Shown piece by piece: positions 31,504 through 36,936 of a stretch of 64,000 bases of DNA. The position numbers were made by a program, and so were the translations under genes. The stretch's first letter is position 1, and each line of letters begins with the position of its first letter. The stretch spans positions 1,192,661 through 1,256,660 of the forward strand of contig NZ_OY761810.1 of assembly GCF_963664915.1 (NCBI RefSeq), given 5' to 3'. Below the pieces are notes generated by a model. The model ran no database searches. It was not told the DNA's origin and worked only from the letters and a program-made list of their open reading frames with translations. The DNA is from an uncultured Caproiciproducens sp. Lineage in GTDB: Bacteria; Bacillota; Clostridia; Oscillospirales; Acutalibacteraceae.

Positions 31504-32499
31504 TTATTTATTTTTGATGAAATTCCAGTTGTCGCGGCACATGTCGTCAAGGCTGTATTTGGCTTCCCAGCCGAGTTCCTTTTTCGCTTTCGAAACATCC
31601 GCGTAGCATTCGGCAATATCGCCCGCCCTGCGCGGGGCAATTTTATAAGTGACTGTTTTGCCGCTCGCTTTCTCAAAAGCGTGAACCACGTCGAGCACGC
31701 TGCTGCCTTTGCCGGTTCCAAGGTTGTAAGCCTGTGCGCCGTCAATCTGCGGCAGTTTCTCCAGTGCTTTCAAATGTCCGGCGGCAAGGTCGCACACATG
31801 GATGTAGTCGCGCACGCCGGTTCCGTCCGGTGTCGGGTAATCATCGCCGTAAATACTCAGGCAGTTGAGCTGGCCGATCGCAACCTTCATGATGTATGGC
31901 ATCAGGTTGTTTGGAATTCCGTTCGGATTTTCTCCGATCAGGCCGCTTTCGTGTGCGCCGATCGGGTTAAAATAGCGCAGAAGAGCAACTTTCCATTTTT
32001 TATCTGCGAAGCAAAGATCCTTCAAAATGTTCTCAATCATCAGCTTGGTTGTTCCGTAGGGGTTCGTGGTGGAAAGAGGCATGTCTTCATTGAACGGCGC
32101 GGTGTTGTTCATGCCGTATACGGTGGCGGAGGAACTGAACACCAGATGGAACACATTATATTGCTTCATCAGCCGCAGAAGATTGATGGTACCGACCAGA
32201 TTGTTGTGATAATACTCCAGCGGTTTTCCGACCGACTCGCCGACTGCTTTCAGTCCCGCGAAATGGATGACGGCGTCAATTTTGTTTTCCTTGAAAATCT
32301 TTTCAAATCCGTCGTAGTCAAGCGTGTCGCATTCATAAATCGGGAAGGTTTTATTGGTGAGTTTTTCCACTATTTTTAAAACATCGGGTGAGGAGTTGCA
32401 GTAGTTATCCATTACTACGATTTCACAGCCATTGTTTAAGAGTTCAATGCAGGTATGGGAACCGATGTATCCTGCGCCGCCGGTAACTAATACTCTCAT
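31504..32499 (-). CDS. galE: UDP-glucose 4-epimerase GalE
   Basis: 331 residues. Rossmann motif GGAGYIGSHTC, Ser/Tyr/Lys catalytic set (SSSATVYG, then YGTTKLMIEN), and the family C-terminal RAGDIAECYADVSKAKKELGW. It interconverts UDP-galactose and UDP-glucose in the Leloir pathway. It overlaps galT by 4 bases and is the last gene of galKTE. Confidence 0.96.
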   Translation of the reverse strand: MRVLVTGGAGYIGSHTCIELLNNGCEIVVMDNYCNSSPDVLKIVEKLTNKTFPIYECDTLDYDGFEKIFKENKIDAVIHFAGLKAVGESVGKPLEYYHNNLVGTINLLRLMKQYNVFHLVFSSSATVYGMNNTAPFNEDMPLSTTNPYGTTKLMIENILKDLCFADKKWKVALLRYFNPIGAHESGLIGENPNGIPNNLMPYIMKVAIGQLNCLSIYGDDYPTPDGTGVRDYIHVCDLAAGHLKALEKLPQIDGAQAYNLGTGKGSSVLDVVHAFEKASGKTVTYKIAPRRAGDIAECYADVSKAKKELGWEAKYSLDDMCRDNWNFIKNK

Positions 32500-33467
32500 T
32501 CTTTATTCTCCTTATAACATTTGTATGCCTCGCGGAGCTCCTGTGCGGTCTCCTCGGGACAGGTGGGATTACAGCTGGCCCATGCGCCTGTTTCACTTGA
32601 GGCGTTGAATTTCTGCTTTTCTGCGCTCCTCATCGGCGGGAAGAATTCAATGTGGAAATGAAATTCCTTTGAATAATCGCCCATGTTTACGGGAGCGTTA
32701 TGCATGCACATCATATACGGGAACCGGTAATTGAACAGGCTGTCGAGCATTCCGACGGTGTCGCGGATGGTCAAACCGAGTGATGCTTTCTCTTTCTCGG
32801 TAAAATTTGTCATATATTCCGTATGACGATTCGAGATAATATACACGCCATAGGGATATTCACAATAAAACGGAAGAAACACCGTAAAATGTTCGCTGCG
32901 GAAAATGATGCGCTTGTCCGCTTGCAGCTCATTTTTGAGGATGTCGCAGAACAGGCACGTGTGCTTATCCTCATAATACTCTTTTGCCGCGCCGGTTTCA
33001 AGCTCCAACTTTTTTGGCAGAAATGGGTAGCCGTACATCTGACCGTGCGGATGAGGCATGGTAACGCCCACAACGTCTCCGCGGTTTTCAAACGGATACA
33101 CATATTTTATTTTTTCGTCGGAGCGCATCCCGTCAAAGCGTTCGCACCATAAGTCCACAAGCTTCTTCATGTGTTCGTCGGAAAGTTCCGGCATGGTTAC
33201 CGTGTGGCGGGGAGAATATAAAATGACCTCGCATTTTCCATAGCTTGGTCTGACTTGAAAGAAGTCGGTTGCAATGTCGTCCGGCTCGGGCGGGGTTTGT
33301 GACAGCGCGGGGAAGTCGTTGTCGTATTCCATTACGTCATAGTCCGGAACATTGCCGAAGCCGGGGCAGAACGGGCAGTAATCCTTGGGCATCTGCGGGC
33401 GGTCCTGCCTGTTTGAAGCAATCATAATCCAGTCCTTGATCAAGGGATGCCATCTTAGCTCAGCCAT
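32496..33467 (-). CDS. galT: Galactose-1-phosphate uridylyltransferase GalT
   Basis: 323 residues from the ATG ending at 33467, preceded by GGAGG; an earlier in-frame start lies inside galK. Zinc site CPFCPG, active-site HPHGQ with the uridylylated His, a second CLFCD motif and FHFHIEFFPP mark the GalT type I HIT-superfamily enzyme. It transfers UMP from UDP-glucose to galactose-1-phosphate. Confidence 0.94.
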   Translation of the reverse strand: MAELRWHPLIKDWIMIASNRQDRPQMPKDYCPFCPGFGNVPDYDVMEYDNDFPALSQTPPEPDDIATDFFQVRPSYGKCEVILYSPRHTVTMPELSDEHMKKLVDLWCERFDGMRSDEKIKYVYPFENRGDVVGVTMPHPHGQMYGYPFLPKKLELETGAAKEYYEDKHTCLFCDILKNELQADKRIIFRSEHFTVFLPFYCEYPYGVYIISNRHTEYMTNFTEKEKASLGLTIRDTVGMLDSLFNYRFPYMMCMHNAPVNMGDYSKEFHFHIEFFPPMRSAEKQKFNASSETGAWASCNPTCPEETAQELREAYKCYKENKE

Positions 33468-33486
33468 GAAAAGTCCTCCAAATATC

Positions 33487-34773
33487 TTATAAAATCTTTG
33501 TGCCGCCAACCGGCCGGATCGACAGTGTGTGGCAGCTCCCTGCGCCGAGCACCGCTTCCATTTTTTTCACGAACTCGTCGAGATAGTCCGCCGGCACAAA
33601 CGACTGCACCGTTCCGGCAAATCCGCCGCCGTGCACACGGTACGCGCCGCCCCTGTCGCTTAAAAGCTTCTGGCAGAGCGCAAGCGTCAGCGAAACGCCC
33701 TGTTCCTGCACATGCGACGAAGAAAATACATTTTGAAGGTACATATAGGAGGAATAGCCGCTTTCAATGATCAGTTTTTTAAACCCGTCAAAATCATTGC
33801 TCTTTAAAGCCGCGACCTCTTTGGTCACTTTGTCGTTGTCCGCAAAATAATGGATTGCGCGCAGAACCGCACGGTCACCCGTCTTTTCACGTATTGCGGC
33901 GATATTCTGATAGAACGCCTCCTGTGAAACTTCGGAAAGCACTTCTTTGCCGAAGAATGCCGCCACCGATTTCATCTCGGCGGGTATCGCGGCATAGTCC
34001 GGCGTCAGGTCGGAATGGCTGCCCTTTGTGTCGATGATACACAGCGCGTAGCCGCATTCTGCAAAATTAAAATCAACTTTCTCAACAATGGGTTCCTCAA
34101 GATTCTTAAAATCGATAGTAACGAACCCGCCGACGGAGCTTGCCGCCTGATCCATCAGACCGCAGGGCTTACCGAAGTAGACGTTCTCCGCGTACTGGCC
34201 GATCTGCGCGATTTTGAGCGCGCTTTCTTTTCCGCCGCAGAATAAGTCGTTAACAATGGTGCCGATCAGCACTTCAAAAGCCGCCGACGAGGAAAGCCCG
34301 GAACCGGCAAGCACGTTTGAAGTGGTATAGGCGTCGAATCCTCCGACGTGATAGCCGAGCTGTGAGAATTTGCTGATAATTCCGCGCACGAGCGCGATGG
34401 AAGAGTTGGATTCCCTTTTCTTCAGGTCCAAATCCGCTGCGTCCAAAGCATCCATAGGATACCCTTCCGACTTGACCTGTACCCGGCTGTTTTCATTGAT
34501 TGAGACAACGGCGATGATATCGAGGTTTACGCTCGCCGCAAGAACCCGGCCGCGCTGATGGTCGGTATGGTTGCCGCCCACTTCGGTTCTTCCCGGGGCG
34601 CTGAATATACTGATGTCCCGTCCCGTGCCGAACAGCTTTTCAAAATTTTCAACTGCAAGGAGCAGTCTTTTGCGGCAGTCCGCCGCTTTCCTGAAATCGC
34701 AGACATAAAGATAGGATAGGTTTTCATCGTATTTTCCCTGAGTAATCAATTCTTTTACTTTTGCAGACAGCAT
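33487..34773 (-). CDS. galK: Galactokinase GalK
   Basis: 428 residues. GHMP-kinase signatures: APGRTEVGGNHTDHQRGRVLA (sugar site), VLAGSGLSSSAAFEVLIG (ATP loop) and GGAYRVHGGGFAGTVQSFV (motif 3). It is longer than E. coli GalK because of an N-terminal extension of about 40 residues. First gene of galKTE, with a promoter directly upstream. It phosphorylates the galactose imported by MglBAC. Confidence 0.95.
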   Translation of the reverse strand: MLSAKVKELITQGKYDENLSYLYVCDFRKAADCRKRLLLAVENFEKLFGTGRDISIFSAPGRTEVGGNHTDHQRGRVLAASVNLDIIAVVSINENSRVQVKSEGYPMDALDAADLDLKKRESNSSIALVRGIISKFSQLGYHVGGFDAYTTSNVLAGSGLSSSAAFEVLIGTIVNDLFCGGKESALKIAQIGQYAENVYFGKPCGLMDQAASSVGGFVTIDFKNLEEPIVEKVDFNFAECGYALCIIDTKGSHSDLTPDYAAIPAEMKSVAAFFGKEVLSEVSQEAFYQNIAAIREKTGDRAVLRAIHYFADNDKVTKEVAALKSNDFDGFKKLIIESGYSSYMYLQNVFSSSHVQEQGVSLTLALCQKLLSDRGGAYRVHGGGFAGTVQSFVPADYLDEFVKKMEAVLGAGSCHTLSIRPVGGTKIL

Positions 34774-34863: not shown

Positions 34864-35012
34864 GGACGATATACTCAATTTTATAGACTTATGTTGCATA
34901 ATGAAGAAGCAGTAGCGGTGCGCCGGATTGCAGAAAAATATTTGATCAATTTTCTTATTCCATGCAAGATCGGTATGTTTTTATTCGTATTGTATATGAA
35001 GGGGGCGAAAAG

Positions 35013-35498
35013 GTGAAATCATCAATCGACACAGACAGCAGGATTCAGTCATGCCTGACAAATTATGCGGATATGGTCGTCCGCATCGCTTTTCAGAACG
35101 TAAAAAGCAGGCAGGAAGCCGAAGATATTGCGCAGGAGGTCTTTCTGCGGCTCTTTACGCTTGGTACCGACTTTAAAAGCGCGGCGCATGAAAAAGCGTG
35201 GATTATCCGGGTTACCGTTAACCTGTGCAAGGATTATCTAAAGTCTTCGTGGTTTAAAAAAAGAGCCGTGCTGGATGACAATATTCTTTCTCATGACAAA
35301 AACAGTGAGGTCTTGGACGCGGTGATGCGGCTGCCGGTTAAATACCGAAATGTTGTTTATCTCCATTACTACGAAGATATGAGCGTAACTGAAATCGCGT
35401 CTGTTTTACAGCAAAAGGAGAATACGGTCTCCTCATGGCTGCACAGGGCGCGAAAGCAGCTGAAGGAATCGCTGACAGGAGGTTTTGACGATGAATAA
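35013..35498 (+). CDS. ECF-type RNA polymerase sigma factor
   Basis: 161 residues from a GTG at 35013, preceded by a GGGGGCG-type site; an ATG at 34962 is possible. Region 2 (YADMVVRIAFQNVKSRQEAEDIAQEVFLRLF) and region 4 (LPVKYRNVVYLHYYEDMSVTEIASVLQQKENTVSSWLHRARKQLKESL) are both clear, with no region 3. Its last 8 bases overlap the next gene, the translational coupling usual for a sigma factor and its anti-sigma factor. ECF operons are normally autoregulated. No target promoter motif was derived. Confidence 0.9.
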   Translation: MKSSIDTDSRIQSCLTNYADMVVRIAFQNVKSRQEAEDIAQEVFLRLFTLGTDFKSAAHEKAWIIRVTVNLCKDYLKSSWFKKRAVLDDNILSHDKNSEVLDAVMRLPVKYRNVVYLHYYEDMSVTEIASVLQQKENTVSSWLHRARKQLKESLTGGFDDE

Positions 35499-36879
35499 AG
35501 AAAACTATATTAACGAATTGGAGCAAATAAAAGCATCCGAGGAGTTTCAACAAAATACAGCGGCGCTGTTGAAAAATCCGCCGCAGGGCAAAGAACCGAA
35601 ACATAAAAAGAAACCCCTGCGTTTTGTTCTGGTTCCCGCAATTGCGGTTGTGCTGGTCTGCGGTTTGTTTTTCAGCGGCGTACTGTTCCCGCTCAGTACG
35701 GTGAGCGCTTCCGAAAACCTGATGAACGGAATTACTGCAAATAAAATCGATGCTGACGATACAATCGGCGAAGACTTTATCCGTTTCGCACAGGATTTTT
35801 CCGTAAAACTGTTTCAAAAATCTGTCACAAAGGATAAAAACTCCCTTGTGTCGCCGGTGTCAGTCTATCTTGCGCTGGGCATGACGGCGAACGGCGCGGA
35901 CGGTGAAACCTTAAAGCAGTTTGAACAGGTGCTTGGCGGCGGGATGAGCATTAGCGAGCTAAGCCGGAATTACTACAATTTTGCAAATCAGCTGAAATCC
36001 ATTCAGAACGGAAAACTGCAAATTGCCAATTCCATTTGGTACCGCGACAAAAGCCTGACGGTGGAAAAGGGATTTCTGCAAAAAAATGCCGATTATTTCG
36101 GCGCGGGCGCGTTTCAGCTTGATTTTACCAAACGGTCCACGGTCAATAAAATAAACGGATGGGTCAAAGAAAACACCGGCGGTAAAATTGATAAAATGGT
36201 GGATAAAATCGACGACACGACCATGATGTACCTGATCAACACCCTTTATTTTGAAGCAAACTGGAGGGATGAATACCTGAAGCATAACATTAGCAGCAAA
36301 GACTTTCACACCGAGAAGGGGACGGTTTCCACTTTATTTATGTCTTCGGATGAAACTTATATTCATGATGAAAAATCCGCAGGAATGGTAAAGCCTTTTA
36401 AGGACACGCGATACGCTTTTGCCGCTATCCTGCCAAACGAGGGCGTCAGCTTGGACGGGTATATTCAGCAGATGACTGGAGAAGGTTTTTTTCAAATGAT
36501 GAATTCAGCCAAAAGCGAAACCGCTGACTGCTGGTTACCTAAGTTTAAGTATGAATACATCACGGATTTGAACGACCCGCTGAAAGCGCTGGGTTTGACG
36601 GACGCCTTCGACTCCGACCGCGCGGACTTCCATTCCATGGGCAGTACGCCGGAAGGGGGGCTTTTTATCAGCGATGTGCTGCACAAGACTTTTATTCAGG
36701 TTGACGAAGCCGGTGCGAAAGCCGGAGCCGCCACTTCGGTGACAATGGCGTGCAGTTCCAGTGCGCCCGGAGCTGAAAAAAAGAAGGTCGTGTTTGATCG
36801 TCCCTTTGTGTATGCGATTATTGATACACAGACGAAACTGCCCGTCTTTATTGGCACGGTTAACAATCCGCAGGAATAA
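35491..36879 (+). CDS. Anti-sigma-like membrane protein with extracellular serpin domain
   Basis: 462 residues from the ATG at 35491 (AGGAGG upstream). Residues 1-43 are cytoplasmic and charged (NKENYINELEQIKASEEFQQNTAALLKN), resembling the short sigma-binding tails of clostridial anti-sigma factors. Residues 45-68 are one membrane helix. About 90-462 is a complete serpin: LVSPVSVYLALGMTANGADGET, LINTLYFEANWRDEY, and the C-terminal DRPFVYAIIDTQTKLPVFIG. The hinge of the reactive loop (EAGAKAGAATS, 406-416) has the small residues of inhibitory serpins, with P1-P1' near Ser-422/Ser-423. A strong terminator follows, so the operon has two genes. A protease-sensing anti-sigma factor is inferred; the domain composition is seen. 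Confidence 0.85.
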   Translation: MNKENYINELEQIKASEEFQQNTAALLKNPPQGKEPKHKKKPLRFVLVPAIAVVLVCGLFFSGVLFPLSTVSASENLMNGITANKIDADDTIGEDFIRFAQDFSVKLFQKSVTKDKNSLVSPVSVYLALGMTANGADGETLKQFEQVLGGGMSISELSRNYYNFANQLKSIQNGKLQIANSIWYRDKSLTVEKGFLQKNADYFGAGAFQLDFTKRSTVNKINGWVKENTGGKIDKMVDKIDDTTMMYLINTLYFEANWRDEYLKHNISSKDFHTEKGTVSTLFMSSDETYIHDEKSAGMVKPFKDTRYAFAAILPNEGVSLDGYIQQMTGEGFFQMMNSAKSETADCWLPKFKYEYITDLNDPLKALGLTDAFDSDRADFHSMGSTPEGGLFISDVLHKTFIQVDEAGAKAGAATSVTMACSSSAPGAEKKKVVFDRPFVYAIIDTQTKLPVFIGTVNNPQE

Positions 36880-36895
36880 AATATTGATGTAAAAA

Positions 36896-36936
36896 GGCAG
36901 GAGACAATGAAAATTGTTGTCTCCTGCCGCTTTTTA
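36896..36936 (+). terminator. Terminator of the sigma/serpin operon
   Basis: GGCAGGAGACAA pairs with TTGTCTCCTGCC, followed by GCTTTTT. It abuts the stop of the small convergent gene at 36934. Confidence 0.85.

What the first reader, a model, noticed from the sequence alone, without database searches (positions are those of the whole stretch)
35013..36879. ECF sigma factor paired with a membrane protein whose outer domain is a serpin
Seen: an ECF sigma gene overlaps by 8 bases a gene for a 462-residue protein with a short charged cytoplasmic tail, one membrane helix (45-68) and a complete serpin with an inhibitory-type hinge (406-416). Known: ECF sigma factors are usually followed by a single-pass anti-sigma factor, and clostridial RsgI proteins carry outer carbohydrate-sensing domains. 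Serpins trap proteases by loop cleavage and a large conformational change. Inference: the serpin is the sensor; cleavage of its loop by a host or competitor protease would change the outer fold and release the sigma factor. I know of no described system of this kind.
Basis: partly seen in the sequence, partly recalled or inferred. Interest (0 to 1): 0.88.

Follow-up and report, generated by a model that had tools for sequence, protein, structure and literature searches.

The report
Serpin-bearing anti-sigma factor in clostridia
A clostridial bacterium carries a gene switch whose likely membrane-bound brake has a protease-trapping serpin as its outer half, and relatives show the same partnership in several independent versions, which suggests, without proof yet, that these cells use a serpin to sense and answer attack by proteases.

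Summary
In detail: an ECF sigma gene (35013-35498) overlaps by 8 bases a gene for a 462-residue protein made of cytoplasmic tail, one membrane helix and a complete serpin with an inhibitory-type hinge. The pair lies between galK and a flagellin gene in the window and three named relatives of the Caproiciproducens group. It is part of a wider pattern: of 150 distinct serpin genes sampled from the order, 45 follow an ECF gene, 18 as tail-membrane-serpin fusions and 27 as separate serpins behind an ECF and a small membrane protein. Three ECF groups (one weakly supported) and at least three tail types took part. Outside the order the link was rare in my sample: 2 of 26 loci, both tengpin relatives. 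No paper that I found links serpins with ECF or anti-sigma factors. The tail is probably an anti-sigma domain. That protease attack on the serpin frees the sigma factor is the best explanation but untested; rivals are a serpin that is only the regulated output, and a serpin consumed while guarding its stalk. The model aligns with native tengpin from the membrane outward, beside a signal-peptidase-like site, which suggests an RsiV-like release, by inference only.

The parts
34963..34991 (+). candidate ECF-type promoter TGCAAG-N17-CGTATT just upstream of the sigma gene's ribosome-binding site
   Evidence: intact in all 5 genus sequences aligned, within a poorly conserved stretch; reading it as an ECF promoter is recalled knowledge
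35013..35498 (+). ECF sigma factor, 161 aa, GTG start
   Evidence: Pfam regions 2 and 4; start and RBS; 83-89% identical in 3 named relatives
35491..36879 (+). membrane-anchored serpin, presumed anti-sigma factor, 462 aa; overlaps the sigma gene by 8 bases
   Evidence: same overlap in 4 other genus genomes
35491..35622 (+). cytoplasmic tail, residues 1-44, predicted helices 3-12 and 17-28; presumed sigma-binding domain
   Evidence: model, pLDDT 72-77 over residues 1-30; a profile of 7 such tails matches the tail of the LCP-type protein of this genome, hhalign E 4e-4, probability 34%, against 0.03 or worse for the 14 other targets
35623..35694 (+). single membrane helix, residues 45-68, preceded by KHKKKPLR
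   Evidence: hydropathy; predicted helix 47-63, low confidence
35701..35709 (+). Val-Ser-Ala (71-73), a signal-peptidase-like site after the membrane helix, followed by SENLM
   Evidence: sequence; the aligned VQA|AENLM looks like the end of a plain signal peptide in the syntenic C. galactitolivorans serpin (by eye); use of the site is inference
35695..35790 (+). linker 69-100, the counterpart of the tengpin N-terminal segment
   Evidence: phmmer alignment to 2pee from residue 75; model 69-460 aligns to native tengpin 36-422
35791..36870 (+). serpin domain, residues 101-460
36706..36786 (+). reactive-centre loop with inhibitory-type hinge (residues 406-432; by convention P1 = Ser422)
   Evidence: P-numbering by recalled convention
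36896..36928 (+). intrinsic terminator, 15 pairs, closing a two-gene operon
   Evidence: 6 terminator-like sites found in the region, 3.2 expected; this one has by far the longest stem

Best explanation
A two-gene, probably self-activating ECF operon whose anti-sigma factor has a serpin as its outer domain. Shown from sequence: ECF gene, overlapping gene for tail + one membrane helix + serpin, a terminator directly after, a conserved promoter-like site in front, and the same pairing in several separate lineages. Inferred: at rest the tail holds the sigma factor at the membrane. [quoted passage not shown] When a foreign protease cuts the loop, the loop inserts into the main sheet, the docking surface changes, and the signal-peptidase-like site next to the membrane becomes accessible. 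Signal peptidase, then the RasP/RseP-type site-2 protease, would destroy the anti-sigma and free the sigma factor, whose first target would be its own operon: more membrane serpin. Sensor, inhibitor and output would be one molecule.
For: Conserved overlapping pair and synteny. Order sample: 18 fused + 27 operon-linked of 150 distinct serpin ORFs. Around 89 serpin ORFs of the named loci, ECF ORFs within 1.5 kb: 25 same-strand upstream, 2 same-strand downstream, 0 opposite-strand upstream, 1 opposite-strand downstream. Three ECF clades, each with fused and operon forms; two with support 0.999, the window's with 0.80-0.85. Hinge pattern in 24 of 25 fused serpins. LCP-bearing protein with a similar tail in the same genome. 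Model: residues 69-460 on native tengpin 36-422. VSA|SENLM against VQA|AENLM of the sigma-less ortholog. Site-2 protease present. Promoter-like site and terminator. Precedents: RsiV is cut by signal peptidase only when lysozyme binds (PMC6066255, passages; PMC9044953, abstract); tengpin's N-tail stabilises the native state at the site that vitronectin uses on PAI-1 (PMC8233489, passages).
Confidence: 0.5

Rival explanations
1. The serpin is only the cargo. The tail is an anti-sigma domain answering some other envelope signal, and the fused serpin is the regulated product, tethered where it protects the cell surface.
For: 27 of 150 order-sample serpins are separate proteins behind an ECF and a small membrane protein with its own outer part; the only promoter-like target found is the operon itself; the serpin is kept without sigma in C. 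galactitolivorans; B. breve has a protease-inducible serpin operon run by a separate two-component system (PMC8012564, passages).
Against: In the window's protein the serpin is the entire outer part, so no other sensor domain is visible; fusion happened with several different tails.
Confidence: 0.27
2. Guard or titration model: the serpin inhibits a site-1 protease near the stalk; when external proteases consume the serpin, the stalk is cut and the sigma factor is freed. The signal is loss of free inhibitor, not a conformational push.
For: Inhibitory hinge kept; tolerates long linkers and separate serpins.
Against: No protease is encoded in the two-gene operon; each anchored serpin would have to guard itself. 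Sequence does not distinguish this from the best explanation.
Confidence: 0.15
3. The serpin is a non-inhibitory binding domain that senses a small ligand or peptide, as the hormone-binding serpins do.
For: A serpin fold can sense ligands (recalled); L223 has a degenerate hinge.
Against: All six hinge positions fit the inhibitory pattern in 24 of 25 fused serpins; hinge 89% identical to the window in 4 genus genomes while P8-P10' is 44-78%.
Confidence: 0.05
4. Chance neighbours or shared regulation without function.
For: 5 of 10 other genus genomes lack the pair and one more has only the serpin.
Against: Strand-specific enrichment and three ECF clades, repeated fusion, synteny, purifying selection (dN/dS 0.15-0.18).
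Confidence: 0.03

Closest known systems
RsiV / sigma-V (lysozyme receptor anti-sigma, Bacillus and C. difficile)
   Same: ECF gene with a single-pass anti-sigma whose outer domain binds a host defence enzyme; signal-peptidase site next to the membrane, then a site-2 protease (PMC6066255 passages; PMC9044953 abstract)
   Different: outer part here is a serpin; no DUF4179 hit; an inhibitor that would itself be consumed; the release step is inferred
RsgI / SigI of cellulolytic clostridia
   Same: membrane anti-sigma with exchangeable outer sensor domains (PMC3990059 and PMC3413522, passages)
   Different: no RsgI domain found; the sigma here has ECF regions 2 and 4; sensor domains named in the passages read are carbohydrate-related, none a serpin
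Tengpin (PDB 2pee, 2pef, 2vh4)
   Different: no tail of the window's kind; a relative (L260) has a separate ECF and DUF4367 protein upstream, a near-identical copy (L290) only remnants
Bifidobacterium breve serpin operon with adjacent two-component system
   Same: protease-inducible bacterial serpin expression (PMC8012564, passages)
LCP-domain protein beside the closest ECF paralog of the same genome (L032)
   Same: overlaps its ECF gene, similar tail, one membrane helix
   Different: outer domain is LytR-CpsA-Psr

Membership tests
Serpin superfamily (PF00079) | complete serpin domain by profile | tested here: met
   E=1e-90, 4-370 of 370 positions
Serpin superfamily (PF00079) | serpin fold | tested here: met
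Inhibitory serpins | hinge with Gly at P15 and small residues at P14, P12-P9 | tested here: met
   EAGAKAGAATS; all six positions
Inhibitory serpins | SDS-stable complex with a protease | not testable with these tools
   needs purified protein
ECF sigma factors | regions 2 and 4 only, about 160-190 aa | tested here: met
   Sigma70_r2 and r4_2, 161 aa from GTG 35013; TIGR02937 over its cut-off
Single-pass membrane anti-sigma factors | gene overlapping or directly after the ECF gene, short N-terminal tail, one membrane helix | tested here: met
Single-pass membrane anti-sigma factors | tail binds and inhibits the partner sigma factor | not testable with these tools
RsiV / DUF4179 family | DUF4179 domain | tested here: not met
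   not among the three Pfam hits at E up to 1
RsiV / DUF4179 family | signal-peptidase site next to the membrane helix, protected at rest | tested here: inconclusive
   VSA|S present by sequence, counterpart of the likely C. galactitolivorans signal-peptide end; protection untested
RsiV / DUF4179 family | site-2 protease in the genome | tested here: met
   PF02163, best of 3 matches 206.8 bits
RsgI family | RsgI N-terminal domain | tested here: not met
   no such hit at E up to 1
Zinc anti-sigma (ZAS) family | HxxxCxxC motif in the cytoplasmic tail | tested here: not met
   tail 1-44 has no cysteine; motif definition recalled
Tengpin-like serpins | N-terminal segment that traps the native state | tested here: inconclusive
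   segment aligns in sequence and model, but mean pLDDT is 60 at 71-80 and 76 at 81-90, and the effect is untested

The most novel reading that the evidence does not exclude
A serpin used as a one-shot membrane receptor: protease cleavage of its loop drives the large serpin transition, which undocks the stalk segment, exposes a signal-peptidase site and releases an ECF sigma factor that makes more serpin. The class arose several times by fusing serpins to different anti-sigma tails, and a large share of the serpins of this order, with tengpin's line outside it, would be parts of ECF-controlled protease-defence circuits.
Probability: 0.38. Interest if true: 0.92.

Novelty: new variant of a known kind. 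Interest (0 to 1): 0.8.

Why it matters
What bacteria use serpins for is an open question; a 2021 superfamily analysis calls understanding the pressures that make some prokaryotes keep them a major goal (PMC8233489, section 15 read). Here 45 of 150 serpin genes sampled from one clostridial order are tied to ECF sigma factors, which gives a concrete regulatory frame and a testable signal, protease attack. If true, it adds an irreversible suicide-inhibitor receptor to the known anti-sigma sensors, links a bacterial response to host or competitor proteases with gene control, and offers a natural route to protease-responsive switches. It also gives tengpin a genomic context that the passages I read do not mention.

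Tried and rejected

Literature: ten searches, all used. Of the 2 + 9 papers holding serpin with ECF sigma factor or anti-sigma factor, four were opened by passages, none linking the two; the others were judged from titles and abstract starts, as were the hits. Of the 3, two were opened by passages. Two gut-serpin papers were searched by terms and showed no link. Of 19 papers listed for tengpin, three were opened, by passages or one section. PMC1905895 (tengpin) and PMC3457475 (B. breve) are not held.

Rows dropped: 261 serpin-like ORFs became 252 near full-length and 232 distinct. L128 and L161 were set aside as weak because of poor sigma scores. ECF ORFs under 120 aa were left out of the sigma tree. 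Matches that one search did not list were not examined. The named loci are the best 80 of 199, biased toward the window's serpin; they gave 3 fused, 13 operon, 1 distal and 55 none of 72 distinct. A locus with little upstream sequence counts as none (13 of 103 in the order sample). Tail types and lipoprotein-type N-termini were assigned by eye.

Full report
WHAT IS THERE. The ECF sigma gene runs 35013-35498 (GTG start behind AAGGGGGCG) and carries regions 2 and 4. The next gene, 35491-36879, overlaps it by 8 bases and encodes 462 residues: tail 1-44, lysine-rich toward its end; one membrane helix; and a full serpin domain, 101-460, E=1e-90. It is the only serpin match in the 3.13 Mb genome. 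A 15-pair terminator follows at once (36896-36928), so the operon has two genes. A promoter-like TGCAAG-N17-CGTATT at 34963-34991 lies just before the ribosome-binding site and is intact in all five genus sequences aligned, while its near surroundings are not. The same motif elsewhere in those genomes is no commoner than the control: 7 other hits against 6.

CONSERVATION. The protein is found from residue 1 to 462 in 4 of 10 other genomes of the genus, at 71-76% identity, each with the sigma gene and the same 8-base overlap. One of 10, G400, has a match without tail or sigma, and 5 of 10 have none. Named relatives are Caproiciproducens faecalis AGMB10547, 'Amazonia massiliensis' MS4 and UBA2656; in all three galK lies upstream and the flagellin gene downstream, as in the window. 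That the window belongs to the Caproiciproducens group is inferred from these matches. In C. galactitolivorans the same place holds a serpin with what reads by eye as a plain signal peptide, and no sigma match. Whole-gene dN/dS against the window is 0.15-0.18 in four comparisons; the hinge is 89% identical in all four, the loop from P8 to P10' 44-78%.

THE TAIL. The closest ECF paralog of this genome (L032, 33% identical) is also overlapped by a gene for a tail, a membrane helix and an outer domain, but that domain is LytR-CpsA-Psr. A profile of seven window-type tails matched that tail with hhalign E 4e-4, probability 34%; the 14 other targets, controls included, gave 0.03 or worse, among them L004, which I had typed as A by eye. 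This supports an exchangeable anti-sigma cassette, moderately. The model gives the tail two helices.

A WIDER PATTERN. In 394 genomes of the order, 184 have serpins. I took the listed matches (L001-L030 regions) and classified the ORFs by serpin and ECF profile searches. Of 150 distinct, near full-length serpin ORFs, 18 are fused (the window among them) and 27 operon-linked; 1 is distal, 1 weak, and 103 show no ECF, 13 of these with under 700 bases upstream. In operon cases a small single-pass protein overlaps or follows the ECF gene, most often with a 4-base overlap, and a serpin follows, mostly with a lipoprotein-type N-terminus by eye. Around the 89 serpin ORFs of the named loci, ECF ORFs within 1.5 kb number 25 upstream on the same strand against 2 downstream, 0 upstream opposite and 1 downstream opposite; beyond 1.5 kb 5, 2, 2 and 1 (a sigma near two serpins counts twice). 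Outside the order, 2 of 26 loci had an ECF upstream.

SEPARATE ORIGINS. The 25 distinct fusions use at least three kinds of tail (A, 8, with the window; B, 10; C, 6; one other; typed by eye). Their ECF partners fall in separate clades: B and C with support 0.999, the A clade weaker with 0.80-0.85; each also holds operon forms, the A clade one (L040). On a FastTree tree of 232 serpin domains, fused versus not needs at least 15 changes; 200 shuffles of the labels need 20-25. The tree has long branches and cannot tell fusion from fission, but tails, ECF clades and serpins together say that it happened several times. L223 (Lachnospiraceae) has a fused serpin with a degenerate hinge followed by a lipoprotein-type serpin with an intact one.

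TENGPIN. The closest solved structure is tengpin. A tengpin relative in G796 (L260) follows an ECF gene, cut by the locus edge, and a complete 297-residue membrane protein with DUF4367. In L290 the serpin is nearly identical to 2pee, but the upstream ECF gene looks frameshifted and the anti-sigma gone except perhaps its first codons (by eye). Two further tengpin relatives, L287 and L288, show no such ORF in the listing. So tengpin's line may descend from an ECF operon (inference).

WEIGHING. Firm: ECF operon, membrane-anchored serpin, repeated pairing. Probable: the tail is an anti-sigma domain. Open: whether the serpin is sensor, output or both. The window's architecture, with no other outer domain, favours the sensor; the 27 operons with a separate serpin favour output. 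The two fit together if the operons use the serpin as output and the fusions add sensing. Closest precedent for protease-controlled serpins: the B. breve operon with its two-component system (PMC8012564, passages).

NOVELTY. Papers with 'serpin' and 'ECF sigma factor' (2) or 'anti-sigma factor' (9), and the other searches, showed none that links them, by titles, abstract starts and the passages opened. The library holds open-licence papers only, so absence from print is not proven.

Noticed in passing
L260 (3-2739) and L290 (738-2781): Tengpin relatives: ECF gene (cut by the locus edge), DUF4367 membrane protein and serpin in L260; an apparently frameshifted ECF remnant and lost anti-sigma before a near-identical tengpin in L290.
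   Followed up: partly
L032 (own genome, G000:C1:566252-569698): ECF gene overlapped by a gene for tail, membrane helix and LCP (LytR-CpsA-Psr) domain, an unusual outer domain for a presumed anti-sigma.
   Followed up: partly
L223, 3264-6167: Lachnospiraceae ECF gene followed by a fused serpin with a degenerate hinge and then a lipoprotein-type serpin with an intact hinge.
   Followed up: partly
L166, upstream of 4901: Two ECF-like ORFs in tandem before one fused serpin (UBA5413).
   Followed up: no
L021, L068, L098, L104; L135, L138, L221: Serpins joined to what look by eye like S-layer-homology or dockerin-type repeats, other ways of fixing serpins to the cell surface.
   Followed up: no
window 31504-34773, - strand: Genes that read as galE, galT and galK (by eye) diverge from the ECF-serpin operon; about 80 conserved bases lie between galK and the ECF gene in the five sequences aligned.
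   Followed up: no
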